A stretch of DNA of 64,000 nucleotides from contig CP053450.1 in NCBI GenBank assembly GCA_013285505.1, positions 1,968,796 to 2,032,795 of the forward strand, given 5' to 3'. Positions 12,300 through 42,867 of this stretch are shown here, in pieces. The position numbers and the translations under genes are program-made. The DNA comes from Planctomycetota bacterium. Its GTDB lineage: Bacteria > Planctomycetota > Phycisphaerae > Phycisphaerales > UBA1924. The stretch's first letter is position 1; each line of letters begins with the position of its first letter. Below the pieces are notes generated by a model. The model did not search any database. It saw only the letters and a program-made list of their open reading frames with translations, and was not told the origin of the DNA.

Positions 12300-12326
12300 T
12301 CTATCGGTCACCGTGTATGGGGCGGG

Positions 12327-17183: not shown

Positions 17184-17687
17184 ATGCAGCGCAAGACCCG
17201 CGCGAGGGGTTTCACCCTCATCGAAGTCATGATCGTCATCGCCATCGTTCTGGCCCTCGCGGCCATCGTCGGCGTAGCGGTGCTTGGCCGTCGCGACCAG
17301 GCGGACATCTCGATCACCCAGATCAAGCTCAACAACCTCAAGTCGGGCCTCAAGCAGTTCAACTTCGACTTCGGCCGCTGGCCGACGGAGGAAGAGGGCA
17401 TCGCCGTCTTGTGGGACAAGGAGGCGCTTGATCCGGAGGCCGACGTGAACAAGTACCTCGGGAAGGGCTACATGGACGAGCCCACGCCGCAGGATCAGTG
17501 GGGTAACGAGTGGGGGTACGCGTTTCCGAGCATCCGCGGCGACGAGACCGAGTACGACCTGTGGTCGTTCGGTCCCAACGGCGAGGACGAGCAGGGCGAG
17601 GGCGACGACATCGTCTCCTGGCGCAGGGATTCCGAGGACGGTGACTTCGGTGGCGACATGATGCCGCCGCCTCCTTCGGGCGGTTGA
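17184..17687 (+). CDS. gspG: Major pseudopilin GspG
   Basis: A 167-residue major pseudopilin that polymerises into the T2SS piston. The prepilin signal is KTRARG|FTLIEVMIVIAIV with Gly at -1, Phe at +1 and Glu at +5, followed by the hydrophobic assembly helix. The GspG signatures LNNLKSGLKQFNFDFGRWPT and PTPQDQWGNEWGY are present, as is the calcium loop YDLWSFGPNGEDEQGEGDDI before SW, with its acidic residues kept. An acidic, glycine/proline-rich tail follows. AAAGGAAG lies before the ATG. It is the first gene of a run of overlapping T2SS genes. Confidence 0.95.
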   Translation: MQRKTRARGFTLIEVMIVIAIVLALAAIVGVAVLGRRDQADISITQIKLNNLKSGLKQFNFDFGRWPTEEEGIAVLWDKEALDPEADVNKYLGKGYMDEPTPQDQWGNEWGYAFPSIRGDETEYDLWSFGPNGEDEQGEGDDIVSWRRDSEDGDFGGDMMPPPPSGG

Positions 17688-17740
17688 GTCGATTGGTCGG
17701 ACCCGGCACGAGCGGGGCGGAGCCCCGGCGGACACACATC

Positions 17741-18490: not shown

Positions 18491-19005
18491 CTCGGAACAC
18501 GGCGCGCGGCTGGGTGTTGCTCGAGATGATGGTCTCGCTGGCGATCTTCGTGATGACGGCGACCGCGGTGCTCAGTGCGCTGGACAGAGGGCTCTCGTCG
18601 GCCGAACGCACGCGCGACCGGGCCAAGGCGGTTGATCTGGCACTCTCGACGATGGTGAAGCTCGAAGCGGGGCTGGGAACGGTGCAGAGCCTCGTGGGCC
18701 CGGTCCCGGCGTGGGAGCCGCCACTCGTGAGTGAGGGGCCGTTTGATGAATCGGCTCCGGGCGGGTTCTCCGAGACTGTCCCTCAGGACTCGATGTGGGA
18801 GATCGAGATCGACACGATGCGGTCGGAGTTCCCGGGTCTCACGCTCGTGACGGTGACCGTGGTGAAGCGGGCGGGGCCGGACAGCGATTCGCTGGTCGCG
18901 TCGTACACGCTGCACCAACTCGTGCGGCTCGGCGACGAGGGCGCGGACACCGTCGGTGAACTGGACGACATGGCGGTGGAGGCATCGCAGGGAGAAGGGC
19001 TGTAG
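18487..19005 (+). CDS. gspI: Minor pseudopilin GspI-like
   Basis: A 172-residue prepilin-like protein, MTRNTARG|WVLLEMMVSLAIFV: Gly -1, Trp at +1 (normally Phe or Met) and Glu at +5, then the hydrophobic helix. Its short size, position between GspH and GspJ, and the LLEMMVSLAIF helix fit GspI, which nucleates the tip complex with GspJ and GspK. The start overlaps the gspH stop (ATGA). Confidence 0.78.
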   Translation: MTRNTARGWVLLEMMVSLAIFVMTATAVLSALDRGLSSAERTRDRAKAVDLALSTMVKLEAGLGTVQSLVGPVPAWEPPLVSEGPFDESAPGGFSETVPQDSMWEIEIDTMRSEFPGLTLVTVTVVKRAGPDSDSLVASYTLHQLVRLGDEGADTVGELDDMAVEASQGEGL

Positions 19006-19008
19006 GCG

Positions 19009-19779
19009 GTGGATGTCCGGCGACCATCACGAACGCGGGGTGTTCCGGCGCAGCGCCGGGGCATGTCGCTCATTGAGGTGATGCTGGCGCTGGCGATTCT
19101 GGCGGTCCTCGCGGTGGGCGTGACGGCGTTCTTCTTTCAGGTGAGTTCCCGCCAGGGCCGGCTGCTGGATATCGCCTCGAGGCAACGTGACGCGTCGGTC
19201 GTGCTCGGGCGGCTCGAGTCGGCCATTATGCACGCGGTGGCGGTCGGCCCGGACGGGGCGTCGGGTATCCAGGGCGACGAGACATCGCTCACGGTGATCA
19301 CCCGCGGCGTGTGGCCGATGCTCGCCGGCGACGCGGCGGTCGGCGACGCGTGTGCCCTGACCTTCATGTTCGACGAGCCCGGGCGGGCCTGCACGCTGGT
19401 CGCGCAGTCGGTGGGGAGGATGAGCGGCTCTTCGCCGCAGCCGGAGCCGGTGTTGGGGCGAGTCGAGCGGGTGCGGCTCCGCTACTCCGACGGCAGGCGT
19501 TGGACAGGCTCGTACGACAGCGTCTCGGCGGGCGGGCTGCCGGTGGCGGTTGAGGTCTCAATCTGGTTCGCGGCGGCTGGTCGCCGCGGCGCGGAGGAGC
19601 GGCCGCCGGAGATGCTCGCGCCGGAGTCGGAGGAGTTCGAGCCGTTCGGCCCTGAGGGGTTCTTCGAGCCGGAGTTTGCGATGGAGCAGGATGAGTCGGG
19701 GTGGGTGCCCCGCGAGCCGGATCACGTGCGCATCATCGGCGTGCCCGATGCTCCGGAGTGGAAGGGGCGTTCGTCGTGA
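19009..19779 (+). CDS. gspJ: Minor pseudopilin GspJ-like
   Basis: A 256-residue protein with a prepilin signal, PAQRRG|MSLIEVMLALAILAVLA, with Gly -1 and Glu +5. The central part includes SRQRDASVVLGRLESAI and VERVRLRYSDGRRWTGSYDS, resembling the GspJ fold region, and a long acidic insertion (ESEEFEPFGPEGFFEPEF) follows. I start it at GTG 19009, after GGAGAAGGG; this gives an 18-residue leader before the cleavage site. GspJ sits in the GspI-J-K tip complex. Its stop overlaps the GTG of gspK. Confidence 0.8.
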   Translation: MDVRRPSRTRGVPAQRRGMSLIEVMLALAILAVLAVGVTAFFFQVSSRQGRLLDIASRQRDASVVLGRLESAIMHAVAVGPDGASGIQGDETSLTVITRGVWPMLAGDAAVGDACALTFMFDEPGRACTLVAQSVGRMSGSSPQPEPVLGRVERVRLRYSDGRRWTGSYDSVSAGGLPVAVEVSIWFAAAGRRGAEERPPEMLAPESEEFEPFGPEGFFEPEFAMEQDESGWVPREPDHVRIIGVPDAPEWKGRSS

Positions 19780-21446
19780 GCGTTCGCAGCGATCGTCATC
19801 CGGTGCTTGGGGCTTGCCGCGGGGGCAGCGCGATCTTCGCGGTCTTGCTGCTGCTGGTGATCGGGGTGATCATCGTGGCGACGGTGCTGGTATCGGCCGA
19901 TGCGGCGGGGGCGTCAACCGAGTCGGAACGGCAGCGGACCCAGTCGCGGGCTCTGGCGTGGTCGGGTGTGCAGGCGGTGATGGCCGAGCTTGCTGAGCAG
20001 CGGGACGGATTGCTGGACGGGCTCGAACCCGAGCTCACCGAAGAGTGGTCTTTGTTCACGCTTGACGACGGGTCCCGCGGGATCGTCCGGTTGCTCGATC
20101 TGGACCCGGAGAGCGCGTCGCTGGTGGTTTCGGAGAACGCTAAGCTCGACCTCAACACGGCGACGGCCGAGATGCTCGCGTTGGTGCCGGGGATCGATGA
20201 AGCGCAGGCGCGTCGGATCGTTGAGGCCCGGGGGGCGCAGCCTTTCGCGAGTATCGAAGAGCTGCTGGGTGTCGAGGGCATCACGCCCGACATGGTCTAC
20301 GGGACGAGGGTCAGTGAGGACGCGGGCATCTTCGCGGGCGAGGTGCCGGCGGCGGCGGCGTTTGCTGGGGGGGGGGATGCGGACGGTGGCCTCGGCGACT
20401 ATCTGACGGTCTTCAGCTTTGATCCCAACGTACAGGTCGGTGTGCAGGGGGAGCGCGAGCATCGCGGGAAGCTGCGTGTGAATCTGGATCAGGCGTGGTC
20501 CGACGCGCTGGAGGACGCGATCGTCGAGCGGTTCGATGCGAACGTCGCGCAGCTGGTGAAGCAGTTGATCGACGGCGGCCAGACGTTTACGACCGATAGC
20601 GAGCTCGCGCGTGTTCTGCTCGACCGCGGGGTGGATCCGGAGGGGTGGAGCACGGTCTTTGATGTCTTCTCCACAACCGATGATGAGTTTCTCGCCGGGC
20701 GGGTGGATGTCAACCGTGCGGGTCCCGACGTGCTGGCGTGTGTGCCGGGGATCACGCCGGAGAAGGCGGCGGCGATCGTGGACATGCGCAGCATGATCGA
20801 CGCCGAATCAAGGACGCTGCCAACGTGGCTTCTGCAGGAGGGCCTGATCGAGCCCGAGGCGTACGCGGAGGCATCGGACTGGGTGACTGGGCGGTCGATG
20901 CAGTGGCGTGTGCGGCTTGAGGTTGGCCTCATGCCGGGCGAGGGGGAAGGGTTCGGTGAGGGGTTCGGCGGATTCGACGAGAGTCTCCCGATGACGATGG
21001 ACGACCTTGCGGCTTCGTGGGACGAGCCGCCGGAGCTTGACAGGCTGCTGCACCGGATGGTGGTAGAGGCGGTCATCGATGTGGCGTCCTCGCGGCCGCG
21101 TGTGGCGTACATGCGAGAGGTCACGCTGCTGGAGCCTGTGCTGGCGATGCTGCGGGCGGGCGCCGAGGAGGCAGACGGTCTGGAGGAGGATGAGGCGCTG
21201 CTTGACGATCTTGCGTCGGGGATCACGGCCGGTGATGATGCGTCGCTGGATGCCGGATTGGACTTTGGGGAAGAGATGGGATTCGCGACGCCTGACGCCG
21301 GAGAGACCGAGTTGCTCGATCCCGATGCTTCGGGCGCCGGGGATGGGGATTTGGCGGTTGAGTCGGAGAGTGGGGCGGGTAGCGGGACGAGCGCGGTGGA
21401 TCGACGGATCGGGCGTTGGACGACACGGAAGGCGGGTGGATCATGA
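19776..21446 (+). CDS. gspK: Pseudopilus tip protein GspK with two helix-hairpin-helix segments
   Basis: A 556-residue GspK, larger than the usual 320 or so. The N-terminus CRGG|SAIFAVLLLLVIGVI is a prepilin signal that lacks Glu +5, as is typical of GspK, the tip subunit. Two GspK/ComEA-like helix-hairpin-helix segments are visible: KLDLNTATAEMLALVPGIDE with ARRIVEARG, and GRVDVNRAGPDVLACVPGIT with AAAIVDMRS. Between them GKLRVNLDQAWSDALEDAIV is GspK-like. The C-terminal 150 residues are acidic and disordered. It starts at a GTG that overlaps the gspJ stop and ends in an ATGA overlap with gspL. Confidence 0.85.
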   Translation: MSVRSDRHPVLGACRGGSAIFAVLLLLVIGVIIVATVLVSADAAGASTESERQRTQSRALAWSGVQAVMAELAEQRDGLLDGLEPELTEEWSLFTLDDGSRGIVRLLDLDPESASLVVSENAKLDLNTATAEMLALVPGIDEAQARRIVEARGAQPFASIEELLGVEGITPDMVYGTRVSEDAGIFAGEVPAAAAFAGGGDADGGLGDYLTVFSFDPNVQVGVQGEREHRGKLRVNLDQAWSDALEDAIVERFDANVAQLVKQLIDGGQTFTTDSELARVLLDRGVDPEGWSTVFDVFSTTDDEFLAGRVDVNRAGPDVLACVPGITPEKAAAIVDMRSMIDAESRTLPTWLLQEGLIEPEAYAEASDWVTGRSMQWRVRLEVGLMPGEGEGFGEGFGGFDESLPMTMDDLAASWDEPPELDRLLHRMVVEAVIDVASSRPRVAYMREVTLLEPVLAMLRAGAEEADGLEEDEALLDDLASGITAGDDASLDAGLDFGEEMGFATPDAGETELLDPDASGAGDGDLAVESESGAGSGTSAVDRRIGRWTTRKAGGS

Positions 21447-23032
21447 AACTCCGAGGGAACCTGGTGGTGCTCTGCCACGAGGGCGAGCGGCTGAGCGCGG
21501 TGTGGGGCACGGTGCAGAAGGACCGGGTCCGAGTCCGCGGCTGGCTTGCCGCCGAGCAGCCGAAGGGCATCGATGGATCGGACACCGAGGGGGTGGGCGA
21601 CTGGGTCGCGTCCTCGCTCAAGGAGGCGGGCTGCAAGGCCAGGGCCTGCGTGATCGCGGTGCCGCGAGCAAGTGTGGTGCTCAAGCGGCTCACGCTGCCC
21701 GCGGCCGCGAGCGGTCGTGAGGGGGATCTGGCGGGGATGGTGCAGTTGCAGATGGCGCGTCAGCTGACGATGCCCCTGCAGGGGGCGGCGATCGACTATG
21801 TGCGGCTCAACTCGCCGCAGACCGAGAGCGGTGAGGGCGACCCCACGGAGCTTCTCGCGGCGGCGCTGCCCGGTGACTTTGTCGCCCACGCCCGGGGCGT
21901 GGCCAAGAAGGCGAAGCTCCGTCTTCGCTCTGTGGCGCTGCGGGGCGAAGGGTCGGCGACGCTGTTTGCGCAGCTCTCGTACACGCAGGACGGCCCGGTG
22001 CTGGGAGTGTCTGTGACGGCGCAGGGGGTGGAGCTGGGCATCGTTGCAGAGGGTCGCGTGGTGTTCTCCCGCGCGGTGGAGATCAAGCCCCCGGCGGAGC
22101 TTGCGGGCTGGGCAGCATTCACACAGCGGGTCGCGGTCGAGGCCAAGCGGACCCGGGTCGGGTACCGCGGCACGGGTGAGTCCGGGGACATCGTGTGCAT
22201 CGCGGTGCTGGGCGACGACGCGATGGCCGAGTCGGTCGGCAAGTCGCTCGGCGACGAGCTGGGGTTGCCCTGGCAGACCGTGCGGTTCCCCAACGCGGTG
22301 GAATTGCCCTCGGAGATGGAGAGCCAGTCTCGCGCGGTGCTCGCGCCGCTGATCGGTTTGATGGTTGGCGCGGCGATCGATCGCCCGACGTACGACTTCT
22401 CGAACCCGCGGAAGGCTCCGGACACCTCGGCGCAGCTCCGGCAGGCGGTGCTCGCGGCGGCGTTCGGGTTCATCATCTTCGGTGGCGGCGGCTGGGTGAT
22501 CGCTGATCAGCAATTGCGGTCGCTCAACGGCAGGATCAACAGCACGAAGGAACAGAGCAACACGCTTGCGATGCAGTACATCCGGCAGCTCCGGGCCGAG
22601 GCGAGGGTGAATCACATCGAGAAGCTCCGCGAGCCGAGTGTGGACTGGCTCGATCACGTGTACTACCTGTCGCAGGCGCTGCCACCGGCGGAGTTGGCGA
22701 GGCTCGAATCCCTCAGCGGAGTGGGGCGGTCGGGGGTCGGCTTCTTCACGCTCGGTGAGGGAGGGGCGATGTCCGAGGCCAAGACGCTGCAGGGCGGGCA
22801 GTGGGTCGCGAGCGGGGGCGCGAGCTTCACCCTGGCGGGGGCGGCGACGCGAGAAGTGGCAGACGAACTGCGGGCCGATGTGGTGGCCGACAACGTCTAC
22901 GAGCTGAGCACGCGCGGTGCCGACGTCGCGGGCAAGTTCGAGTACGTGCTCAAGACCTCGGGGAAGAAGCCGATGGCGGTGAGCGGCGAGTCGGACACGG
23001 CTGAGTCTGGGCAGTCGGGGGGTGCGTCATGA
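21443..23032 (+). CDS. gspL: GspL/PilM-like actin-fold protein with membrane anchor
   Basis: A 529-residue protein. Residues 1-320 look like the cytoplasmic actin-like domain of GspL/PilM (VVLCHEGERLSAVWGTVQK, AVPRASVVLKRLTLPA, and a later FPNAVELPSE segment). A single membrane helix follows (AAFGFIIFGGGGWVI, about residue 345), then a periplasmic coiled coil (LRSLNGRINSTKEQSNTLAM) and a ferredoxin-like end, the GspL/PilN layout. It links GspE to the inner-membrane platform. The start overlaps gspK and the stop overlaps gspM (ATGA at both ends). Sequence similarity to classical GspL is low; context and topology carry the call. Confidence 0.82.
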   Translation: MKLRGNLVVLCHEGERLSAVWGTVQKDRVRVRGWLAAEQPKGIDGSDTEGVGDWVASSLKEAGCKARACVIAVPRASVVLKRLTLPAAASGREGDLAGMVQLQMARQLTMPLQGAAIDYVRLNSPQTESGEGDPTELLAAALPGDFVAHARGVAKKAKLRLRSVALRGEGSATLFAQLSYTQDGPVLGVSVTAQGVELGIVAEGRVVFSRAVEIKPPAELAGWAAFTQRVAVEAKRTRVGYRGTGESGDIVCIAVLGDDAMAESVGKSLGDELGLPWQTVRFPNAVELPSEMESQSRAVLAPLIGLMVGAAIDRPTYDFSNPRKAPDTSAQLRQAVLAAAFGFIIFGGGGWVIADQQLRSLNGRINSTKEQSNTLAMQYIRQLRAEARVNHIEKLREPSVDWLDHVYYLSQALPPAELARLESLSGVGRSGVGFFTLGEGGAMSEAKTLQGGQWVASGGASFTLAGAATREVADELRADVVADNVYELSTRGADVAGKFEYVLKTSGKKPMAVSGESDTAESGQSGGAS

Positions 23033-24078
23033 AGCGCGCGCAAGCGGTCATCCTCGGGATGGTCATGATCGTCGGCATGATCGCTGCCGGTGCCGGGGCG
23101 TACTACCTGCACTTTCTTCGGCAGAAGGGCGATTTGCAGACACAGTTGGCGACCTATCAGGAACGTATCGGCGGATACCAGGAATGGTTGGACGGACGCC
23201 CGCCCGTGAGCGAAAAGCTCAACGCGTTCGCGACCGCCACGCTGGGATACGACGCGGAGGTCGTCGAGTCGCGGTTCCGTTCGGGGCTGAATCGCATGGC
23301 GGCTAGTGCGGGGCTGATCAAGGACGACACGATCGTGAGCCCTCGGGGTACGCTCACCGCGGTCCGCAATCCTGCGGTGCTGCAGAGGGTCGCCGAGTTT
23401 CGTGCGTTCCAGAACGACGAACGCATCGTCGCCCCCGATCTCTACGTCATGGAGGCGGAGATCCGCGGCAGCGGGACGCTGGAGGCCGCGATCCGGCTGC
23501 TGGCGCTCGCGCAGACCCAGCCGTGGATCTGGCGCGTGCGCGGGTTCTCGATCACACCTCAGGGCAATCAGGGCACGATGTTTGATATCAACGTCGGGGT
23601 GACAACCGCGGTGCTCCCCGATCTTGCACCGGCCGACGCACGCGAGACCGGCGAAGGCCGCGCGGAGGTCGAGCCGCCCGCGATTCTCGACCCGGACGCC
23701 CAGCATCTCGCGGCGACCGCGGCGATCGTGAAGCGGAACGTCTTTGCGATCCCCAAGCCACCGCCCGCTGCGCCGGAGACAGTTGTGGTCAAGGCCAACC
23801 CCGAGCAACCTCCACCCAAGCAGCCGCGCCCCAAGCCGAAGCCGCCGCCCTATCACGAGTGGCGACTGACCGGCGTGAGCGGGAGTCCTGCGCAGGGCAT
23901 GCTGGCGTGGATGCAGAATGTGACAACGGGCACAGCGGTGCTCCTGCGCCCCGGTGAGGGCGTCCTGGACGCGACCTTGGAGGAAGCAAACACCGAACAG
24001 GTTGTGTTCCGGATCGGTGACGCTCGGTACCGACTGAGCCTGAACGAAACCCTTGCAGACCGTCACTTGCTGGAGTAG
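23029..24078 (+). CDS. gspM: GspM/PilO-like protein with a C-terminal GspC/PilP-like domain
   Basis: A 349-residue bitopic protein. A membrane helix near the N-terminus (VILGMVMIVGMIAAGAGAYY) is followed by a coiled coil (LQTQLATYQERIGGYQEW) and a GspM/PilO-like domain to about residue 210. A proline-rich linker (PPPKQPRPKPKPPP) leads to about 65 residues, RLTGVSGSPAQGMLAWMQN and GEGVLDATLEEANTEQVVF. That last part resembles the small beta domain of GspC (HR) or PilP, which contacts the first secretin ring. No separate gspC is found, so this protein may supply both the GspM and GspC functions. The C-terminal assignment is an inference from pattern and gene order. Confidence 0.7.
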   Translation: MKRAQAVILGMVMIVGMIAAGAGAYYLHFLRQKGDLQTQLATYQERIGGYQEWLDGRPPVSEKLNAFATATLGYDAEVVESRFRSGLNRMAASAGLIKDDTIVSPRGTLTAVRNPAVLQRVAEFRAFQNDERIVAPDLYVMEAEIRGSGTLEAAIRLLALAQTQPWIWRVRGFSITPQGNQGTMFDINVGVTTAVLPDLAPADARETGEGRAEVEPPAILDPDAQHLAATAAIVKRNVFAIPKPPPAAPETVVVKANPEQPPPKQPRPKPKPPPYHEWRLTGVSGSPAQGMLAWMQNVTTGTAVLLRPGEGVLDATLEEANTEQVVFRIGDARYRLSLNETLADRHLLE

Positions 24079-24113: not shown

Positions 24114-24176
24114 GCTCAGAGGCCGCGGAGTCGGCCGGGCGGGCACGGCGTGCCCGTCGTTCGAAAGGAGTCTCTC

Positions 24177-27100
24177 ATGCACGCACGAGTCCGCTCGCGG
24201 GCCGTTTTTATCGCCGCTCTGGTCGCTTCGGCAGGTTCTGCCGCGTCGGCGTTGGCGTTCCAGGAAGCAGTGACCGAGCCAAAGACCGAGGACGCGGTGC
24301 CGCAGGCGGCGCCCGCGGCCGAGGCGGTCCAGCCGGCGGCCGGGACCGATGCCGAAGCGCAGCCGGTTGCCGACCCGAAGATCCGCTTCCAGTTCAAGGA
24401 CACGCCTTTTGAATTGGTGCTCGACTTCTTTGCGCGGGAGACCGGGCTCCCGGTGATCCGCGAGGCCGAGCCGCCGAAGGGCACCATGACGTTTGTGGGC
24501 GGGTCGGCGTACTCGTTCGAGGAGGCGCTCTCGATCCTCAACATGAACCTCATGCTGCACGGCGTGTCGTTGCGCCGTGAAGAGAACTTCCTTTATCTCG
24601 CGACGATCAAGGACTCGGTGCGCCGACCCTCGCGGGTGGTCAGCGCCGAGGGGCTGCCCGAGGGCGTCACGCCGGACATGATCGTCACGATGACGATCCC
24701 GCTCGACAACACGCGGGCGACGCAGGTGGCCGAGCAGATCAAGCCGTTGCTCGCGGAGTTCGGCGCGGTGACGCCGATCGACGCGCAGAACATGCTGATC
24801 CTGGTCGAGACCGCGGCCCAGTGCGAGCGGATCGCGTCGCTGGTGCGGTCGATCGATTCGGTCCGTCCGGTGGATTCGGAGTTCCAGGTCTTCAAGCTGC
24901 AGCACGCCAAGGCCAAGGAGGTCGTCGAGGCGCTCAAGGGGCTCGTCGGCCAGCGGATGCAGCAGGTGTTCATCGACAAGGACGGCAACCGCACCGTCGC
25001 CGAGGAGATCGACGTTGCCGGGCTGAACATGCAGCCGGACCCCCGAACCAACTCGGTCATCGTCGTCGGTTCGACCAACCGCATCGAGACCGTCGAGCAG
25101 TTGATCCAGATCCTCGACGTGCCGGGTGGTGGGCTGACCGGTGAACAGCAGATGCTGACGTTCGTGCTCGAGACCATCACACCGGACGAGGCCGCGAAGA
25201 CGCTCAATGCGCTGTTTTCGTCGGTGCCGAAGGAGTCCAAGCCGACGGTGATCCCGCTCCCCGAGGTCAACAAGATCACGGTGATCGGTGCACAGGCGCT
25301 GGTGCTCCAGGCGACAGCGCTAGTCGGCGAGATCGACCCGGCCGCGGCGACCGGCGAGCCCCGCGATGCACAGCCGGAATCGGTGGTGCGGGCGATTGCG
25401 CTCGAGCACATCGAGCCCGGGCAGGCCGAGCAGATCGTGCGCCGCATGCTCACGGTGCGGCAGCAGCAGGTGGTCCGCTACGGCGTGCTGCCGGACGGTT
25501 CAGGGCTCCTGGTCTCCGGCCCGACGGCCGACGTGGCCACGTTTGAGCAGTTGCTCTCGGGGCTCGATCGGCCGGCGTCGGTCAAGACCGAGGTCCGGGT
25601 GGTTCAGATCGACTCGGCGGACCCGCAAACCGTGATCGACCGCGCCCTCGAACTGGACAAGCTGACCGACGAGGGTGTCGAGGAGCCGGTGACGGCGACG
25701 CTCGACGCCGAGTCGCGCACGGCGACGATCGTCGGCTCCGCGGCCGCGATCTCGCGGTTCGAGCGACGGCTCAACGAGGTCGAGCAGCGCGTGGTGGCAC
25801 GGAGTGTCTCACGGACGTATCAGCTCGCGATGGCCAAGCCGAGCGAGCTGGCGCCGCGGCTGACGCGGCTGGCCCGGCCGCTGCTGACGCCCGACGACGG
25901 CACGCCGTACGTCGCGCCGACCTTCGAGCCGCTGGACGAACTCGACACGCTCATCGTGCGGGCCGAGGCGGAGCAGTTCGCGGTGCTCGAAGAGCTCATT
26001 TCACAGTTTGACACCGAGGAGCTGGTGCGTCGGGATTTTCGCGTGATCCGCGTGCAGAACGGGCAGCCGGCCGACATCCGAGATCGGGCGATCGCGTTGC
26101 TGGAGCAGACGAACAAGGGGCTCGAGGAGGACGAGCGGGTTGAGGTCGAGGTGCAGGTAGACGCGGCGTCCGGCAACCTGCTGGTGTGGGCCGACAGCCG
26201 CAGCATGCAGCAGTTCACCAGCGTGCTGCAGCAGGTGCAGCAGCTCGTGCCGCCGGCGCGGACCACGCGGGTCGTCGATGTGCGAAACATCGAAGCGTCT
26301 TCCATCCTCGCGCCGCTCCAGCAGCTGCTGGCGTCGGCCGATTCGATCGACCCGGCCCGGGCGATCCCGGACCCGACCATCACGGTGCTGGATCGGACCA
26401 ACTCGTTCGTGGTGACCGCGGAGGCGGCGCAGCATCAGCTCGTCGCGGAGATGATCCAGCGGCTGGACCGCCCCGACCCCTCCGACCTGCCGCCGATGCG
26501 GCTGCTGCAGCTGCGGGCGGCGGACGCGACGAACGTCGCGCGGCTGCTACAACAGCGGTACGACAGCCGCCCCCTGACCGAGCGGACGGCCCGGCCGGTC
26601 AATATCCAGGCCGAGGCGCAGACCAACACGCTGATCGTGACTGCGCACGAGGAGTTGTTTGAGGATGTCAAGTCGCAGATCGACATCCTGAACCAGGAGG
26701 GCCAGGCCGAGCCGGAGCGGACGACTAAGCTCTTCCCGCTCAAGGTCGCCAAGGCGGCCGACGTGGCGTCGGCGATGGACAAGCTCTACCCGCTGCCGCC
26801 GATGCCGGCCGACCGGTTCGGCCGTCCGATGCCCTGGCTGCAGGAAAAGAAGGAGGTCAACGTCTCGGCCGACCCTTCGAGCAACTCGCTGATCTTCGAT
26901 GCGCCGACTGACCGCATCCCCGACCTGGAGGAGCTCGCGGCCCAACTGGACCGGGTCGAGGTTCCGCCCCAGGCCGAGTTGCGCACGTTCCGGGTCGTCA
27001 AGGGCGACCTGAACACGATCACGTCCACCCTTTCGGGTCTGGCCCGGCAGGGAGCGCTCTCGATGCCGGCCCAGCCGGGCAAGCAGGCGGTGAAGGTGAT

Positions 27101-30100
27101 GGTCGAGGCCGAGCCCCGCTCGAGCACGCTGATCGTCGCGGGGGACGACTTCACGTTCACCAAGGTCGAGGAGATCCTCGAGAGTCTTTCGGCGGTGCCG
27201 GTCGAGCGGTCGCTCCGGATCGTGCCGATCTCGAACGTGCCTGCATTGACGGTGCGCGACAGGGCGATGACGATCTACAACGCGCAGATCGCGGGTCTCC
27301 CCGAGGCCCAGCCGGTGGAGGTCACGGTTGACGACGACTCGAACTCGCTGGAGATCGTGGGTTCGCTCGACGGGCTCGAGCGATTCTCGGCGATCATCGA
27401 TCAGCTGCAGCGCCAGACCGGGTCGGCCCGCGAGGTGCGGCTGATAGAGCTCAAACTGGCCAAGGTCACCGACATCATCTCCTTCCTCGAGGAGATGGTC
27501 GCGGCCAACCAGTCGATCACCATGCAGGGCGGGCCGACGCCGGTCTTCGAGCCGATCGAGGCGACCAACTCGCTGCTGGTCGCAGCCCAGCCGAACCAGT
27601 TGACCATCATCGATCAGCTGGTGCGATCCGTGGACGCCCAGCAGGCCGGCGAGCGGCCGCCGCTCCGGATCCTGCGCCTGCGGACAACAGACGCGAGCGG
27701 GCTCGCGGTCGTGCTGCAGCAGTCGTACGCCGGCCGCCCCGTCGAGGAGCGGACGAAGAAGCCGGTGGATATCCAGGCCGACGCGGCGACGAACACGCTC
27801 ATCGTTTCGGCGCACCCCGACGTCCTGCCGGAGATCGAGCAGATCGTCAGCCAGCTCAACGAGACGCAGGCGATGGACGCCGAGGGGCGGGAGATCCGCA
27901 TCTTCCCGCTGTCGTGGGCGCGGGCGGAGGAGCTGGCGAGCACGATCGACGAGATGTTCCCTGAGCCGCCGATGCCGTACGACTCGCGCGGCAGGCCGAT
28001 GCCGCACCTCAAGCAGCCCAAGGAGGTCTTCGTCCGCGCAGACCGCGCGACCAACTCGCTGATTGTCGACGCACCGGCGCAGCGGCTCGCCGGATTCGAG
28101 CAGATCGTGACGAGCCTCGACCAGCAGAACATGGGCGAGGATCTCGAGATCAGGACCTACCGCATCGAGCGGGCGGATCTGGCGATGGTTGCGCGCACGC
28201 TGGAAGACCTGTCCTCGAGCGGGGCGCTGCGGGCGAGCAGCCGCACGCCGGTCACGATCAACACCGAGGCCACCACACGGACGCTCGTGGTGAGCGGGCC
28301 GACCGAGGTGTTCAAGCACGTCGAGGACGTACTGGACTCGCTGGGGCAGACGCCCGAACGGCCGGACACGTCGATGAAGATGTACCCGCTCAAGTTCGCG
28401 CGGGCCGAGCAGTTGCAGGCGTTGCTGACCGATCTGCTCGCGACGCGCCTCCGTGACGAGCAGGAGCGGCAGGGGCGTTCGGTCGACGCGGTCGAATCGC
28501 TGCTCGACGTGGCCTCGCACGGCCCGTCGAACACGCTGATCATCACCGCGCCGGCCTCGATCCAGCAGATCGCCGAGGAACTGATTCGGTCTCTCGACAC
28601 CGAGGCCGCGGCGGCGGGTCGGCGGACGATCCGCGTGATGCCGCTTACCTTCGCCGACGCAACGGAGGTGTCGCGGACGCTGACTCAGGCGGTCCCGAGC
28701 ATGGAGCTGCCCGGCGGCGGCGACGTGACGATCATCGCCGCGGCGGGGTCGAACGCGATTATTCTGGCCGGCGCGAGCGCCGACCTCAAGCGGGTTGAAG
28801 AACTCGTCGCCCCGCTCGATGTGCGTCCGGACGATCCCGAGGAGATGGGCGTTGAGACGTTCAAGCTCGAGCACGCCGACGCGACGCGCATCGCGACGAC
28901 GGTGCAGAGCCTGCTGGTCGAGCAACAGGAGACCGATCCGAGGATCCTCGCGTATCAGCTGAGATACTCGCGGAATCCGAACATGTTTCAGAAGCCGACG
29001 ATCCGCGTCGAGGCCGAGCCCCGGACCAACGGGCTGATCGTGTCGGCGCCCTCGGCGACGCTTGATCTGGCCAAGACAATCATCGAGCGGCTCGACGAGC
29101 CCGCCGAGGTGACCGACCGCAAGGTCGCGACCTTCACGCCGACGAAGGCCGATCCGGCCAAACTCGTTGCGTTGGTCTCCAGAGTCGTAGAGGAGACGCT
29201 GCCGCAGGAGCGTCGCGGGCTCGAGCTGACCGCCGAGCCGGGCACGCGCTCTGTCGTGGCAATCGGTAGCGAGGCGCAGATCGCCGAGGCGATGCGTCTG
29301 CTCGCGGACTTCGACGACCGTGCGTTCTCGCTGCCGGATGTTGAACTGACGGTGGTTGACCTGGAATACGCCGACGCGAACGCGGTGGCGCGGACAGTCG
29401 AGGCGTTGGCGTCGGACCGATCGCGCTGGCCGCAGCCGTTGCGTGACGCCGAGCAGGCCGGCATCGCGGTCGCCGCCCCGCGCATCACCGCCGAGGCCGA
29501 GGCCAACCGGCTGGTGATCAGCGCGCCCGGCCCGCTGGCCCCGGTGATCCGAGAGCTGGTCGCCACGCTTGATCGGCCCTCCGGCCGCGAGGTGCAGGTG
29601 CGGCTGTTCGCACTCAGGCAAGGCTCTGCCGACTCCGTCGCGGCCGCGCTGCAGGCGGCGTTCTCGGCCGGGATCAAGCCCGGCGAGCCCCGAGCGGTTG
29701 CGACGGCCGAACCCACGAGCAACACCGTCGTCGTCTCGGGCTCTGCCGAGCGTGTGGCGCAGGCCGAGTCGTTGGTCCGGGCGATGGACGACACGGTTGA
29801 GCCGAACGGCATGGCGGTGCGGACGATCTCGCTCAAGCACGCGCGGGCCACCTCGCTGGCGCCGATCCTCGAGCAGATCCTGACCGAGGAATCAGCGCTC
29901 GACATGGTGCCGGAGTGGAACCGGTGGCTGGCCATCTCGCGCGAGCCGTCGTTGGCCGAGGGCGATGTGGTCCGCGTCGCGGCGGAGCCGCGGCTCAACG
30001 CGCTCGTGATCGCCGCCCCGCTCGATGTGCTCGCGCTGGCCGAAGAGATCATCGGCGAACTCGATGTCGCGCCCGATGGTCCGGACGGCGGGGAGCGGCT

Positions 30101-33100
30101 GGTCCGGGTGATCCCGCTCCTGAACGCCGACGCGACGGCGCTGGCGGCCAACATCGACGCGGTCTTCGAGGAGGACGCCTCGGTCGCGATCCCACCGGTG
30201 GTCCGCGTGGATGCCGAGGGTAACGCGTTGATCGTCAGGGCGACGACGTCGCAGATGAGGATCATCGAGCAGTTGGCCAACGACCTTGACCGGGCCACGG
30301 TCAGCAGCGCACGGCAGATGCGGATGATCCCGGTGGACCGATCCCGCGCCGACGCGGCCCTGATGGCCTCGACGCTGCAGCGTCTGCTGGAGCAGCAGGG
30401 TGGTGTCAAGGTCGAGATCATCTCGACCGAGGAACTGCTCGGCCAGCCGGCCCCGACGCCCGCACAGGAGACACCGGCGGGTGGGCAGCGTGGGAGCGAC
30501 GCCGGTAGCGATGGCGGAGGAGACGGGGCGGCCGGCGGTGGGGGAGGTGATGGATCGCAGCAGCATGCGGCCGGCGGGTTTCTGACGCTCCGAGCGCTGC
30601 TGGTGTCGATGGCGGTTGCCCAGCCGGAAGAGGCCACCGACTCGCAGGACGAGCCGGTGGTACGCATCGCGGTCGACCCTGTGAGCAACTCGCTGGTCGT
30701 CATCGGCTCGCCTCGGCTCACCGACCGGATCGCGGCCCTTGTCACGCAGCTGCAGGACCAGATGCCGACCGATCCGTCGTCGGTGCGGATCGTGACGCTG
30801 CCCGACAGCGCCGATGCGCAGGCGATTTCGCAGATCGTGACCCCAGACCGTGCGGCAGGTCGGGCGGGCCAGCCCGAACAACGCCGGCGGCTTCACGGGC
30901 TCTGTGGCGGTGCGGCCCGACCCGTCGGGCAGCGCAGTCATCGTGTGGGCCAATTCCATGGACTTCGAAGTTGTCGGGCCGCTGATCGCCTCAATCGCCA
31001 GCCTCGACGCGGACCTCTCGGTCACGGTCAAGAACTACCAACTGGAGAACATCCCCGCCGATCGTGCCCAGCGGGCCATCGCGGACCTCTTCACAACCAG
31101 CCCCCGCGGCAGGCAGGCACAACGCGTGCGCGGGTTCGATGTGACAATCGAGAACGCCCCGGGCCGCGCTGTCACAGCCTCGGTCGATCCGGACTCGGTC
31201 CGCGTGACCGCATCGCCGGGCGGCACGAGCATCCTGGTCTCCGCCCCGGCAGAGGCCCTCGACCTGATCGATTCGCTGATCGGCCTGCTCGATCAGAGCC
31301 CCGTCGCGGACCGTCTGGCGATCCGCCGCTATGCGCTCAAGAACGCGGAGGCGACGGACCTGAGCCGCACACTGCAGACAGCCTTCGATGCCCAGCGCCG
31401 GGGTGCGGCGGGAAACGACGGGGTTCAGGCGAGGTTCGTAGCGGATGATCGTACGAACTCGATGCTGGTCACCGCCTCGGCGCGGCAGCACGAGGAGATC
31501 GAGAGGCTGCTGACTAGCGCAGATGCGCCGCAAGCCGACGACGGCTTTGAGATGGCCATTATCCGGCTCGAGCAGGCCGATCCGCAGGCGACGCAGCGGA
31601 TCCTTGAGCAGGTCATTATCGGCAGAGACGAGGGCAAACGCGACCGCGTGCAGATCTCCGCCGAGCGAAACTCGAGTGTGCTCGTGGTCCGGGCCGAACC
31701 GGAGGACCTCGCCGAGATCCGCGGCATCGTTGCCGAACTCGACACGGTCGAGACCGCTGGCCTTCCGGTGCGGTCAATCAAGCTGGAGCGTGCAGACGCG
31801 GCCGAGGTCGCTCGCTCGCTGACCACCTTCTTCCGCGACCGCCAGCAGGCGATGCAGCGGGCGGGGCTCCGGACCAATCAGCAGGGCGTGGCGATCACCG
31901 GCGACCGACGCAGCGGCACGCTCATCGTCGCGGCCGGCGACACGGACTTCGAGCAGATCACCGAGCTCGCCAACCAGTATGACACCGACTCGGCCGCGAT
32001 CGCGGAGTTGAAGTTCGAGATTGTGCGGCTTGAGAACGCGCGGGTGGGGGACCTGGAGGACACGCTCCGCAACCTCGCGGGAGAGCTGCAGTACGAGAGG
32101 ATCTACGGCGGGCGGTTCCGCAACGAGCCCTCGCCTCAGGAGGACAAGCTGCTGCTGGAGTTCAACGAACGGCTCAACTCGGTCGTCGTGATGGGACAGG
32201 GCGAGACGATGGAGGTGATGAAGAACATCATCGCCAAGCTCGATGTGCCCTTCTCGGAGATGACGGCCCGCGTGGTCAAGGTGATGCCGATCAGCCAGGG
32301 CGACCCGCAGACCATCGCGACGGTGGTCGAGAACGCGATGGATTCCGGCGGCAACGACGATTATTGGTACTGGCCACCCCGCAGCGATCCGGACAAGGTG
32401 ACCATCGAGGTTGACGCCCGCAGCCGCGCGATCATCCTGGTTGGCCCCGGGGCCAAGGTCGAGCAGGCCGCGGCGTATGTCGAGCAGCTCGACACCGTCT
32501 CCGGCCGCCCCAACGCGGTGGTCAGTTCGATCCAGCTCCAGCACGCCGACGCCCAGCGGGCCGCCCAGAGCCTCGGCGCGTTCTTCCGACAGCGGGCCCG
32601 CGCCGAGGGCTCGCCGCCGGAGGCCGTGTCCGTGGTGGGTTCGCGCGACGGCAACCTGCTGTTCGTGACCGCCGACGAGGACAGCATGGAGCTGATCCGC
32701 ACGCTGGTGGCCGATCTCGACACGCCCGAGATCGGCGACGACCGCCAGATCGAGATTGTCTTCTTGCGCAACGGGACCGCGGCCAAGGTCTCGCAGGCGG
32801 TCCTCTCAATGTTCCCGCAGACCGGCCGCTCCGACGAGCGGGTGCTCGTCACGCCGCAGCCGGAGAACGAGTCGCTCGTGATCTCCGCGCCGCCGTCCCG
32901 GATGGAGAAGGTCCTCTCTCTGGTGGCCGAGCTCGATGCCGCGCCGCGCCCCGAGGACGTCAACATCGCGTCGATCCCGCTGAAGAACGCCCGGGCACTC
33001 GATGTCGCCGAATCACTGCGGCAGGCGCTCCCGTCGTCGATCAAGATCACCATCACCCCGGTGACCCGGTCCAACACGCTCCTGCTTACCGGATCGGACG

Positions 33101-36100
33101 AGACCATCGCCCTGGTGACCGAGCAGATTGAGGGCCTCGACATCGAGCCCAACACCGAGCTGCAGACCTTCAAGCGGATCAAGCTCGAGCACGTGCTGGC
33201 CAGCGATGTCCGGCTCACGCTGAGCACCCTGCTGCGCGATCTGCCGACCGGCGCGGGCGAACCGCAGCCCAAGGTGGACTATTCGCCCAACGAGAACACG
33301 ATCAGCGTGCTGGCGACGCCCGACCAGATGGCCCGGGTGCAGGAGATCATCCGCGAGCTGGACGTGCCCAGCGGCGAGAGCCGCCGGACGGAGTTTGTCC
33401 GGATGGAGTTCGCTGATGCCGTGCAGACCGCCGACGCCCTGAAGGTGTTCTACGGCCGCTTCGCCCAAGAGGCCAAGACCTTCGCCGCCCGCAACGTCTC
33501 CATCGTCGCCGACGAGGCAAGCAACTCGCTGGTCATCAGCGCTGAGGAGAGCGAGTGGGAGAGCATCCGGGCACTGCTCGAGAAGCTCGACACGCCTGAC
33601 TACGACACCTCGCGTCAACTTGTGGTGATCCCGCTCAAGCACGCGGACGCCGCGAGCGTTGCGCGCGCGCTCAACGAGGGTTTCCGGCAGTCGCTTCAGG
33701 ACGAACTGAACCGGGAGCGGGCCCGCCAGCAGCAGAACCAGCCCCGGAACAGCAACAACGACCCGCGGTCGGGCGATTTCTACGCCCCCCCCGTGCTGAT
33801 CGACGCCGCCGGCGTTCCCTCGGTGTCGGCCGAGGCGCAGACCAACTCGCTGATCGTCTCCGCCGGCCGCAAAGAGCTGGAGCGGATCGAGCGGATCGTC
33901 GAGCAACTCGACCTGCCCGAGTTCGTGAAGCTTCCGCAGCCGGTGGTGATCCCGATCGAGCGTGGCCGCGCCAGCGCCATCGCCGCGTCGATCTCGCAGA
34001 TGTTCGCGAGCATCTCCGGCAGCAACGGCCCGCGGTCGGCAAGGATCTTCGGCGACGACATCTCCAATACACTGGTTGTCCGCGCCGACGAGGACGACCT
34101 CGTCCAGATCTGGTCGCTGGTGCGGGAGCTGCAATCACAGAGCGAGGTGGCCATCGCCCCGCGGCTGATCCGTCTGGAGACCATCCCCGCGACGCGCCTC
34201 CGCCAACTCGTGCAGACCGCGTTCGCTCCGGTCGCCCAGCGGATGGGTGAGCCCTTCTCGGTCGACGTGGAGCGGAGCAGCAACGCCCTGGTGGTCTCGG
34301 CGTCGCCGAGCGTGTTTGAACAGGTTCGGGCGTTCGTCGCCGAGTTTGACACCCCGCCCGAGGACGACGGGGCGGATGGCCAGCCCGAGCGGGACGGTGC
34401 TGGCAATGGTGCTGCCGCGACGCCGGGGATGCAGATCGTGCCCGTGACCAACAACGCCCCCGAGGCGATCCGGGCGATGCTCGAGCAGATGGGTGTGACC
34501 CGCCCGGTCCCCGACGACCGGTTTGGCATCGTGTCGGAACCGGTGACGCTGGTGGAGATCGCCAATCAGGCGGCGATCGGTATCGTCGCCAACCCGAGGG
34601 ATGCGGAGGTCGTCGCGGGGCTCATCCGGGCGCTCGACGCCCAGCCCGGCGAGGTGTCGCAGGAGATGGCGGTGGTGCCTCTGAAGCTCGCGGCCGCGTC
34701 CAGCATCGTCGCGACGCTCCGGGAGATGCTCGATCCGGCGACGCAGGACGCCAAGACCGGCCCGGCCCAGGCGGTGCGCGAGCACGTTCGCCGGCTGCGG
34801 CTCAACCGCGGCTTCGGGCGGGGCGAGCTCTCGCTCGACCTGACCGAGCCGATCCGGCTCATTCCCGCGGCGGAAACCAACGCGGTGGTCGTCGGCTCGA
34901 CGCCGGCCAACGTCGCGGCGGCTCGTCGACCTGATCGGCACGCTCGACACGCTGCCGGTGGGCGACGCGGTGGTGGTCCGGATCTTCCCGCTCGAGAACG
35001 CGGCGGCGAACCGCATCAAGTCCATCATCGATCAGCTCTTTAGCGAGGGCGAGGGCGGCTCCGCCGCTTGCCGGGCACCACCCGCCGGGGCCTGCCCCCG
35101 ACGGCGACGGGTCAGGCGCTGGCCGGCGAGATCGCCGTGTCGGTCGACGACCGCACCAACGCCCTGCTCGTCGCGGGGCGTGAGGAGGCCGTCGCGCTGG
35201 TCGAGGTGCTCATCAGAGACCTCGACGCCGACACGGTCGGCAACTGGGTCGAGCCGGCGTTGCTGCCGCTCGAGCACGCCGATGCGCGCACGATTGCGGA
35301 CATCATCAACCGAGTCGTCATCCAGGGAACACGGACGACGCCCGAGGCCGACGGTCTGCAGCGGCAGGTTGCCAGGCTGCGGGTGCTCGCCTCCGGCGGC
35401 GACCCGACGGACCCAGCGGCACGGATCGAGTCGGACCTCTTCGTGCCGCTGGCGAGCCTCGTGGTGGAGGCCGAGCCCGAGACCAACACGCTGATCGTGG
35501 TCGGTACGCCGGCGAACATCGAGGTCGTCCGCGAGCTGGTCTCCTCGCTCGACGTGGAACTCGCCTCGGCCGGCAACGTCGTGCGGTTCTTTCCGCTCCG
35601 CTTTGCGGCGGCCGATCGGGTCGGCTCGGTGCTCAACGACGTGTTCAGCCAGCGTGAGGCGGCCGGTGTGCTGCGGCCGGAGGACCGGCTGATCGCCGCC
35701 CCGGACGCGCGGACCAACACGCTGATCGTCTCGACGAGCGCCCGCTCGTTCGAGATCATCGAGTCGCTGCTCACCTCGCTCGACGCGGAAAACAGCAACT
35801 TCACCGTCGGTCTGCACGTCCTGCCGGTGCCCGGGGCGGACGTCTCGGCGTTGGCTCGGAACCTGCAGCAGCTCATGACCGAGCGCATCGAATCGACCCG
35901 CCGCACCGGCGGGATCGATTCGCCGATGGACACCTTCAGCGTGCTGGCCGATCCGGCCAACAGCCTGCTCATTCTCGCGTGCAGCGAGGAGAACCTGCAG
36001 CTGGTCAAGGATCTTGTGAGCACCATCCAGGACGACGCCGGACTGATCTCGAGCGGCGGGCGGATGGAACTGATCGAGCTGCAGCACGCCCGCGCCGAAG

Positions 36101-38187
36101 AGATCGCCGGGTCGATCCGCGAGGTGTACGTCAACCGGGAGAACGAGCGTCGCGGGCAGAACACCGTCAGCGTGACCGCCGAGACCAGGCTCAACGCACT
36201 GATCGTGCGCGGCGGCGACGCCGACATCGATGCAATCAGGGAACTTGTGGCCCGGTTCGACAAGGGCGAGGTCCTCAGCGTGCAGGACGTCCGCCGGTTC
36301 GAGCTGACCTCGGCCAACGCGCTCGAGGTGGTCCGGCTGCTCGAAGGCGTGCTCGCGGGGCGTGGTCTCGCGGGTTCGACCGGCCAGGGCCGGGCCACCC
36401 GGCTCCGCTACCTGCGGCAGGAGGTGACCGACGCGCTGGGCAACCGGGTGCCCGGGGGTCTGACCGAGGCTGAGGTCGATGACTTCATCCGCGAACAGGT
36501 CCGCCTGACCGCCGACCTGCGCACCAACTCGGTGCTGGTCTCAGCACCGACGTCGATCGTGGACCTGATCGAGTCGATCCTGCTCGACCTTGACGGGTCG
36601 ACAGCCGGCTCCCGGGAGATCGAGACCTTCCGCCTGGTCAACGCCGACGCGCGGGCGATGGCCGAGGTGCTCCGGGATCTGTTCAACCTGCGTCTGCAGG
36701 GCGACACCCTGGTACTGATCCCGACCGGTCAGCGCGAGGACCCGGAGGATCCACAGTCGCCGCGGAGTTCTTCCAGCGTGACCGCGGTGCCCGATGAGCG
36801 GCAGGAGCTCTCGATCACGATTGATGCGCGCACAAACACCCTGCTCGTCTCGGGCACCGAGGAGTATCTAGAGCTGGTGCGCAAGGTCGTGATGGACCTC
36901 GACGTCATCGAGGCAAACGAGCGGGAGCAGTTTGTGTTCCATCTCAAGAACGCAAAGGCCAAGGAGCTCGAGACCACGCTGCAGAGCTACTTCGACACCG
37001 AGGCCACGACGATCCAGGCGGCGCTGGGTGGTGCAGGCGGTGTCGCCGGCTCGGTGTCACGGCAGCTCGAGCAGGAGGTCACGGTCGTCGGCGACGAGAA
37101 GAGCAACAAGCTGCTGATCTCGGCCTCGCCGCGGTACCTCAGCCAGGTCGAGCAGATCGTCACCGAGTTGGACGCGGCCCCGCCGCAGGTGGAGATCCAG
37201 GTGCTGCTGGCCGAGGTGACACTCGACGATGAGGACACCTGGGGCGCGGACATCACGGTCGGGGGCATGTCGGGTCTCGGCCCGGACGCCTACCAGCTCG
37301 GCTCGTTTGCCGCGGGCGGTGCGCTCTCGAGCGCGCTGGGCGCCGCCAACCTCTCGGTGTCGAGCGTGGACTTTGAGCTGATGGTCCGAGCGTTGGAGGT
37401 ACAGGGCAAGCTGGAGGTGCTGAGCCGCCCGTCGGTCACTGTCAAGAACAACGAAGCGGCCCGGATGCAGGTCGGTGAGAACATCGGTGTGCCGGGCGAC
37501 ACGACGTCGACCAACTCCGGCGTCACGACCGGTGTGACCTATCAGGACGTCGGCATCATCCTCGAGGTCACGCCAACGATCAACAAGGACGGCTTCGTGC
37601 AGTTGGATATCAAGCCGGAGATCTCCGCGCTCACCAGCCGCACGACGCAGGTCAGCGAGAACGTCCAGGCGCCGATCATCACGAGGCGTTCGGTGGACAC
37701 CACCGTGAGCGTGATGAACGGGCAGACCGTGGTGATCGGCGGCCTGATCCAGACGACGAAGGAGTCGCGGGAGTGGAAGGTGCCATTCGTCGGTGATATC
37801 CCAATTCTTGGGCTGCCGTTCCGTTCCTCCAAGGAGTCAAACGTCAAAACGGAGCTGCTCGTCATCCTGACGCCGCACATCATCCCCGGCGGACAGCCCG
37901 CGGTCGAACGCTACCGCACCCTCACCGACAAGGCGATCAACGGCCTCTCGGATCCGCAGCGGGTCATCGACGAGGTCGGGCCCGTGGACGGCAACCGGCA
38001 GGAGGCCCCTCCTCCGCTGGACGAGCAGTCGGACGCCTCTGTCGATTTCCTCAGCGCTCCGCGCATCAGGGCCACACCGGCTACCGTGGAGGGGAACACC
38101 AGGATCGAGGCGAGCGAGATCGATTGGACGGCCGTGACCCGGATCCAGGCCAAGCAAGCCGACAAGGCCGAGGAAGGCCGGAAATAG
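24177..38187 (+). CDS. gspD: Giant type II secretion secretin GspD with about 50 N-domain modules (three indels)
   Basis: Secretins form the multimeric outer-membrane gate of T2SS. After repair this gene encodes about 4,670 residues, roughly seven times a normal GspD. The order is: signal peptide (RAVFIAALVASAGSAASALA), acidic linker, N0 domain (IRFQFKDTPFELVLDFFARE, near 24380-24600), about 50 N1-type modules (24691-37180), then one secretin barrel (37186-37890). The barrel has EIQVLLAEVTLDDEDTWG, LSRPSVTVKNNEAARMQVGE, the conserved VPFVGDIPILGLPFR and ELLVILTPHII. A short C-terminal tail follows that might bind a pilotin. ATG 24177 follows AAAGGAG. Breaks lie at 30838-30845, 34918-34923 and 35060-35067; the reading of modules continues in register across each, and the first two are repaired by GCGC. 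Barrel and N0 are ordinary, so it should still gate secretion, at the end of a very long periplasmic stack. Confidence 0.93.
24691..37180 (+). repeat. Array of about 50 tandem secretin N1-type modules inside gspD
   Basis: Each module averages about 83 residues (250 bases). It begins with a strand such as VRxIPLKHADA, then a helix (SVARALNEGF-like), a variable loop, and then the strand-turn-strand hallmark xxADxxTNSLIVSA followed by a helix ending LVxxLDxP. Examples of the hallmark are ADRATNSLIVDA (about 28050), AEPRTNGLIVSA (about 29030), ADEASNSLVISA (about 33520) and ADLRTNSVLVSA (about 36520). I counted 50 by this hallmark, including the ones that cross the indels. The modules are strongly diverged from one another, so the array is old and is not an assembly collapse. 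Confidence 0.9.
26031..28370 (+). repeat. Five-module block duplicated within the gspD array
   Basis: Modules 8-12 (26031-27207) and 13-17 (27208-28370) match in order. Both blocks start with a module holding a DRA helix (DIRDRAIALLEQTN; TVRDRAMTIYNAQ). Two modules later come ERTARPVNIQAEAQTNTLIV and ERTKKPVDIQADAATNTLIV. Next are PPMPADRFGRPMPWL and PPMPYDSRGRPMPHL, then modules with SGALR-like loops. The period is about 390 residues. It shows that the array grew by copying groups of modules. Confidence 0.8.
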
Positions 38188-42853: not shown

Positions 42854-42867
42854 GCGTGTCGCCATCC

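What the first reader, a model, noticed from the sequence alone, without database searches (positions are those of the whole stretch)
24177..38187. A secretin of about 4,670 residues with roughly 50 stacked N-domains
Seen: one signal peptide, one N0, about 50 N1-type modules each with the xxADxxTNSLIVSA hallmark, and one complete secretin barrel, all in one reading path once three indels are allowed. Known: canonical GspD has N0 plus three such modules, and each module forms one ring of the periplasmic channel. Inferred: about 50 rings would build a periplasmic tube well over ten times the usual length. Planctomycetes have a deeply invaginated inner membrane and wide periplasm, so such a tube could bridge distances that a normal secretin cannot, or underlie their pit-like surface structures. 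I know of no described secretin of this design.
Basis: partly seen in the sequence, partly recalled or inferred. Interest (0 to 1): 0.95.

Follow-up and report, generated by a model that had tools for sequence, protein, structure and literature searches.

The report
Giant secretin with fifty N-domains
A group of environmental planctomycete bacteria encodes a type II secretion outer-membrane channel protein with about fifty ring-type domains instead of three, which likely stack into a periplasmic tube many times longer than any secretin known from structures.

Summary
These look like assembly indels: a 94-96% identical database orthologue (P0004, 4673 aa) and two same-genus orthologues (open frames of 4685 and 4682 codons) are unbroken. 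It is a GspD by curated model and lies in a type II secretion cluster. Long arrays are common in this class (23-62 modules in 267 barrel-bearing database proteins, 265 with at least 30); none of 137 sampled genomes of other classes of the phylum has more than 23 Secretin_N matches in all. In the window's clade the modules are near-strictly colinear: about 50% identity by position, 19% between modules of one protein. Two results go beyond the finding: (1) in eight genomes of other families the array is divided over two or three adjacent genes, N0 found only in the first, barrel only in the last; (2) other members of the class keep ordinary N0+3 GspDs in a like gene cluster, so the giant is an expansion. 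Best reading: stacked homo-oligomeric rings forming a conduit of roughly 100-200 nm across a wide periplasm. Rings, length and function are inferred, not shown.

The parts
10184..11357 (-). GspE/PilB-type ATPase (T2SSE + MshEN), matches split over two frames
   Evidence: PF00437 at G000:C1:1979271-1980152 and 1978979-1979212; PF00437 and MshEN on the frame 10326-12308
14170..15134 (+). GspF-type platform protein, matches split over two frames
   Evidence: PF00482 at G000:C1:1982965-1983324 and 1983630-1983929
17184..17687 (+). GspG major pseudopilin
   Evidence: PF08334 73.4 bits and N_methyl, both over cut-off
17684..18490 (+). GspH-like minor pseudopilin (name by position and pilin-like N-terminus, by eye)
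   Evidence: no Pfam or NCBIfam match; HMM built from it hits in 20 of 24 array loci, window included, but cross-hits other pseudopilins
18487..19005 (+). GspI-like minor pseudopilin
   Evidence: TIGR01707 E 1.6e-5, below its cut-off
19009..19779 (+). GspJ-like minor pseudopilin
   Evidence: N_methyl over cut-off, T2SSJ E 1.3e-5 just below cut-off
19701..21446 (+). GspK
   Evidence: T2SSK and HHH_3 over cut-off
21416..23032 (+). GspL/PilM-like inner-membrane protein
   Evidence: PilM_2 35.1 bits over cut-off; TIGR01175 below cut-off
23029..24078 (+). GspM/GspC-like protein with C-terminal HR-type domain (expected N0 partner; inferred)
   Evidence: NF041515 GspC_delta E 6e-8 over residues 191-340, below cut-off; found in exactly the 24 of 41 genomes that have a long array
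24177..30842 (+). Giant GspD, first frame: signal peptide (by eye), N0, first half of the modules
   Evidence: open frame 24150-31448; Secretin_N 616.6 bits; 84% aa identity to G001
24366..24608 (+). N0 domain
24693..37176 (+). Array of about 50 Secretin_N (beta-alpha-beta-beta-alpha) modules
30844..34917 (+). Giant GspD, second frame
   Evidence: open frame 30850-35043; Secretin_N 421.0 bits; 81% identity to G001
34918..35070 (+). stretch of about 50 codons in another frame between two compensating frame changes; stop at 35041 in the main frame
35071..38187 (+). Giant GspD, third frame: last eight modules and barrel
   Evidence: TIGR02517 GspD 408.9 bits, over its cut-off 351.35; 85% identity to G001
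37390..37884 (+). Secretin barrel domain
   Evidence: PF00263 residues 775-939 of window:35068-38184, 166.5 bits
38197..38703 (+). 168-aa putative lipoprotein, pilotin candidate by position (inferred)
   Evidence: no family match; HMM hit in 20 of 24 array loci, window included, some loci being cut short; lipobox pattern in 14 of these 20, 12 plausible by eye

Best explanation
This is a type II secretion secretin (GspD) whose N1-type domain has been multiplied to about fifty copies, predicted to form a stack of homo-oligomeric rings that would carry the pseudopilus and secreted proteins through an unusually wide periplasm. Shown: sequence anatomy (one N0, about 50 modules, one barrel), GspD family match, gene cluster, orthologues, purifying selection, positional conservation. 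Inferred: N0 docks on the HR-type domain of the neighbouring GspC/M protein at the inner membrane, the barrel sits in the outer membrane, and each module makes one ring; at 2-4 nm per ring the tube would be about 100-200 nm, and a 15-mer of the 505-kDa chain about 7.6 MDa. Growth probably went by duplication of blocks of modules (a five-module block, 7-11 and 12-16, is still visible), after which each position diverged and was kept. In other families the same kind of stack is encoded as two or three proteins, which fits rings that dock end to end.
Against: No structure, localisation or oligomer state is known. The AlphaFold monomers are of modest confidence (pLDDT 63.7 and 74.3, pTM 0.30 and 0.34), so the arrangement of modules is unknown. 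N-module symmetry is disputed even in ordinary GspD (PMC10550240). A tube this long would need an equally long pseudopilus or another way of loading. Colinearity with the sister clade's arrays is strong only near the C-terminus, so the clades would share length rather than detailed sequence. The pairing behind the common cut point is only moderately firm (15-24 of 33-47 modules have their best match on the path). In G386 no array gene was found in about 13.6 kb upstream of its 14-module barrel gene.
Confidence: 0.66

Rival explanations
1. The modules form a flexible, non-ring tether (beads on a string) that lets an ordinary outer-membrane secretin with a few rings reach an inner membrane that lies far away.
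For: Domain arrays often act as tethers (general knowledge). P0004 has two long gaps between recognised modules, 79 and 105 residues (the first may hide a weak module). The segment around G001 residues 1872-2340 has the highest dN/dS of ten, 0.23.
Against: In eight genomes the array is cut into two or three proteins with N0 on one and the barrel on another, which a covalent tether could not bridge without further assembly. Linkers are otherwise about 10 residues. Each position is conserved on its own, more than a spacer needs.
Confidence: 0.17
2. The array is an in-envelope scaffold or selective conduit in which individual rings bind cargo, peptidoglycan or partner proteins; length is a by-product of many distinct binding rings.
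For: Modules of P0001 have diverged to 19% mean identity, yet each is about 50% identical to its positional counterpart in distant orthologues.
Against: Does not by itself explain why divided arrays (29-45 modules in 8 loci) and undivided ones of their sister families f8 and f22 (32-41 in 8 loci) have like totals.
Confidence: 0.12
3. Assembly artefact or pseudogene: a collapsed or duplicated repeat, or separate proteins joined by eye.
For: Three frame changes in the window; GspE and GspF matches in the window are also split over frames; single-contig genome with only 86% completeness.
Against: Open frames of 3109-5018 codons in 21 other genomes, 20 of them with the barrel in the same frame, and 120 listed database proteins of 4198-4897 aa; modules are not copies of one another (19% mean identity); dN/dS 0.126.
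Confidence: 0.02

Closest known systems
GspD / T2SS secretin (TIGR02517; solved e.g. 6hcg PulD, 5wq7, 5wln)
   Same: N0, Secretin_N modules, barrel, GspC-type partner, pseudopilin-K-L gene cluster
   Different: about 50 modules instead of three (N1-N3); about 4,670 residues, against chains of 387-657 residues among the solved GspDs
Thermus thermophilus PilQ (PMC5745081, passages)
   Same: extra beta-alpha-beta-beta-alpha rings that reach across a wide periplasm; six stacked rings, 350 A long
   Different: type IV pilus secretin of 757 residues; about eight times fewer rings
Ordinary GspDs of the same class (G172, G032, G378, G058, G287; L113, L114, L115, L118, L126)
   Same: like gene cluster (GspL not recognised in G378), N0, same barrel family
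   Different: three modules, open frames of 704-1074 codons; barrels in a clade of their own with L116 and L119
Barrel-less array proteins of other Phycisphaerae families (e.g. G101, L110:4114-12339; P0241-P0300)
   Same: N0 (60 of 65) and 15-36 modules; next to GspC/M in the 8 loci examined
   Different: no barrel; in the 8 loci the barrel is on the last array gene, with 11-16 modules. Neighbours of the database copies were not examined.

Membership tests
T2SS secretin GspD | matches the GspD family model over its curated cut-off | tested here: met
   TIGR02517 408.9 bits on window:35068-38184 and 517.2 on window:24150-31445 (the latter by many repeated module matches), cut-off 351.35
T2SS secretin GspD | C-terminal secretin barrel | tested here: met
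   PF00263 166.5 bits; Foldseek best matches 5zdh, 6i1x, 5wq7
T2SS secretin GspD | N-terminal N0 domain | tested here: met
T2SS secretin GspD | three N1-type modules (N1, N2, N3) | tested here: not met
   about 50; this departure is why it is called a variant
T2SS secretin GspD | encoded with GspC-HR partner, pseudopilins, GspK, GspL, GspE, GspF | tested here: met
   GspH, GspI, GspJ and GspC by matches below cut-off or by position only
T2SS secretin GspD | homo-oligomeric rings in the outer membrane | not testable with these tools
   needs structure or localisation
Type IV pilus secretin PilQ | TIGR02515 over cut-off | tested here: not met
   232 bits against 284.35 on window:35068-38184
Type III secretin SctC | TIGR02516 over cut-off | tested here: not met
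   191.3 bits against 238.45 on window:35068-38184

The most novel reading that the evidence does not exclude
Phycisphaerae build a new kind of envelope machine: a type II secretion conduit of 30-60 stacked rings, about 100-200 nm long, with a ring number fixed within each lineage, made either from one giant polypeptide or from separately exported barrel-less ring-stack proteins that dock end to end between the inner-membrane platform and the outer-membrane barrel. It would be the longest periplasm-spanning channel known and would bridge the invaginated inner membrane of planctomycetes.
Probability: 0.58. Interest if true: 0.94.

Novelty: new variant of a known kind. Interest (0 to 1): 0.87.

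Why it matters
The secretins in the papers I read have three to six N-rings. An array of about 50, colinear across a clade and found in single frames of 3000 codons or more in at least 45 of 397 sampled genomes of the class (my count of the listed rows, a lower bound), gives a direct handle on how planctomycetes could move folded proteins and pseudopili across a periplasm that can be very wide. The divided arrays give a natural test of whether N-rings assemble independently. Among the 120 listed database orthologues the names given are 'hypothetical protein', 'secretin N-terminal domain-containing protein' or 'type II secretion system protein D', and most have none.

Tried and rejected
Rejected: artefact or pseudogene (intact orthologues, dN/dS); programmed frameshifting (most orthologues are unbroken, and in two other broken assemblies the frame changes map elsewhere: in P0004 numbering G039 at about 1840 and 3330 against about 2230 and 3575-3625 in the window, and L032 at about 1743 of G009); PilQ or SctC membership (below cut-offs); origin of crateriform pits (array not seen outside the class in the sample). 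Inconclusive: whether giants arose once (tree of 60 barrels: giants fall in three groups, seven ordinary T2SS GspDs form their own clade, an eighth, L117, is a long branch outside it, deep forks weak); colinearity between the window's clade and G166 (score 43.6 for P0001 against a shuffle maximum of 38.3, the firmest pairs among the last modules). Structure models were only monomers of about 1000 residues. Nine paper searches (open-licence PMC papers only; I saw listings and abstract starts) listed none that describes a secretin with such an array; subscription journals and bioRxiv were not covered. Rows dropped: G128 (cut by the contig end) and G386 (array gene not found) were counted neither as single nor as split; two barrel hits (L008 and a 220-codon piece of G128) were left out; GspC/M was not recognised in G111, G128 and G386.
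Full report

The breaks. The genome is a single contig of 4.12 Mb, estimated 86% complete. Orthologues place one frame change at about 30,842; between about 34,920 and 35,070 the orthologous residues lie in a different frame. P0004 is 94-96% identical to the window protein and unbroken at 4673 aa; G001 and G003 of the same genus have open frames of 4685 and 4682 codons. GspE and GspF matches in the same window are also split over frames. In two other broken assemblies, G039 and L032, the changes map elsewhere. I conclude assembly indels; I have no reads to prove it. dN/dS between window and G001 is 0.126 overall and 0.065-0.23 in ten segments.

Family and cluster. NCBIfam's GspD equivalog is passed (408.9 against 351.35); PilQ and SctC are not. 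Upstream lie GspG, H-, I- and J-like pseudopilins, GspK, a PilM/GspL-like protein and a GspM/GspC-like protein whose C-terminus matches GspC; GspF and, on the other strand, a GspE-type ATPase are also in the window. The names GspH, GspI, GspJ and GspC rest on sub-threshold matches or position. Downstream is a 168-aa putative lipoprotein found in 20 of 24 array loci, window included. The GspC/M gene is found in 24 of 41 genomes, exactly the 24 that have a long array, and in none of the 17 with 1-10 Secretin_N matches.

How widespread, how fixed. In 397 genomes of the class the listed rows show at least 45 with a match inside a single open frame of 3000 codons or more, up to 6169 (my count of the listed rows, a lower bound). 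Of 156 phylum genomes, 137 belong to other classes; none has more than 23 Secretin_N matches, and the longest frame among the listed rows is 2701 codons. A search of 5.8 billion proteins gave 363 hits; the 120 listed are 4198-4897 aa with 43-53 modules, median 49. The search takes only proteins of like length and lists the best, so this spread is a biased sample. Colinearity does not depend on that: in 11 proteins compared with P0001 the order of best-matching modules rises in 46-49 of 49 steps; mean identity to the best match is about 0.5 (0.74 for P0004), against 0.19 on average (0.56 at most) between modules within P0001. Two shorter arrays examined lack blocks: modules 7-11 and 12-16 of P0001 look like a five-module duplication that is single in P0119, and P0100 lacks a block near 20-23. 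Across the 267 barrel-bearing proteins listed by three searches the count is 23-62, median 47, and at least 30 in 265.

Divided arrays. Of 25 further loci of the class, chosen for contiguity and high scores and not at random, 15 have one array gene, 8 have the array divided over two genes (G062, G101, G235, G246, G255, G287, G364) or three (G070), and 2 are unresolved (G128, G386). N0 is detected in the first gene in 7 of 8 and in no later one; the barrel is only in the last. Totals are 29-45 modules in the divided arrays and 32-61 in 14 of the 15 undivided ones; the fifteenth, G057, has 22. Hydrophobic N-termini that look like signal peptides are visible by eye in several of the pieces; no predictor was run. 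In 8 of 8 divided loci, and 14 of 15 undivided ones (not G111), a GspC/M-type frame directly precedes the N0-bearing gene (G287's first gene counted although its N0 was not detected). Mapped onto the undivided G166 array the cut falls between modules 26-27 and 28-29 in 8 of 8; G070 has a further cut near modules 8-10; the pairing is moderately firm, 15-24 of 33-47 modules having their best match on the path. Barrel-less array proteins are common: 65 of 332 database proteins collected in three searches have no barrel, 60 of these 65 with a detectable N0; three are labelled partial. One chain in some lineages and two in others implies physical association of the parts (the 'Rosetta stone' argument, from general knowledge).

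Ordinary relatives. A like cluster with an N0+3 GspD, in open frames of 704-1074 codons, occurs in G172, G032, G378 (GspL not recognised), G058 and G287; G078 has five modules; G184 has four, with N0 and GspL not recognised near a contig end; G086 has a 978-codon N0+5 secretin whose neighbours were not recognised. G287 has both kinds. In a tree of 60 barrels seven ordinary GspDs (L113-L116, L118, L119, L126) form one clade (100/100), L117 is a long branch outside it, and giants fall into three groups (25, 19 and 2 rows); whether giants arose once is open. Between the window's clade and G166 the order carries signal (43.6 against a shuffle maximum of 38.3) but mostly near the C-terminus. Much of the expansion may therefore be parallel.

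How it likely works. [quoted passage not shown] Thermus PilQ has six and is 350 A long, spanning most of a wide periplasm (PMC5745081, passages); Klebsiella PulD with bound HR domains reaches about 20 nm into the periplasm (PMC6882859, passages). By extension about 50 rings at 2-4 nm would be 100-200 nm; the 2-nm end is recalled, the 4-nm end is a rough reading of PilQ's length. Planctomycete periplasm can be greatly enlarged (PMC5394234, passages). The divided arrays favour stacked rings over a flexible tether, since a cut tether would not connect. None of ring formation, tube, length or cargo is shown.

Verdict. It is a new variant of a known kind, GspD, with a ring-domain number far outside any described secretin that my searches found (searches named under Tried and rejected).

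Noticed in passing
window 10184-11357 (-) and 14170-15134 (+): GspE- and GspF-type matches are also split over two frames each, a sign of indel errors in this assembly.
   Followed up: partly
L126 and L105 (G287): One genome carries both an ordinary N0+3 GspD cluster and a divided giant array, so two type II systems may coexist.
   Followed up: partly
own genome, L120-L123, L125 and L068: Six further secretin-type frames of 494-899 codons; five have two to four modules by my HMM, most lie beside pilin-like frames, and four (L120, L121, L123, L125) are near-identical in the barrel region.
   Followed up: partly
window 39997-44073 (+): 1358-codon frame without any Pfam match, downstream of the PstS-like gene.
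   Followed up: no
window 38901-39863 (+): PstS-like periplasmic binding protein (PBP_like_2) soon after the secretin cluster.
   Followed up: no
L074 and L075 (G082): Largest array seen: a 6150-codon frame in the fetched DNA with 61-63 modules, depending on the threshold.
   Followed up: partly
L033:10001-10117: A Myxococcales-labelled contig end encodes 39 residues 82% identical to the window protein; perhaps a binning error.
   Followed up: no
L104 (G386): A 14-module barrel gene with no array gene within about 13.6 kb upstream.
   Followed up: no
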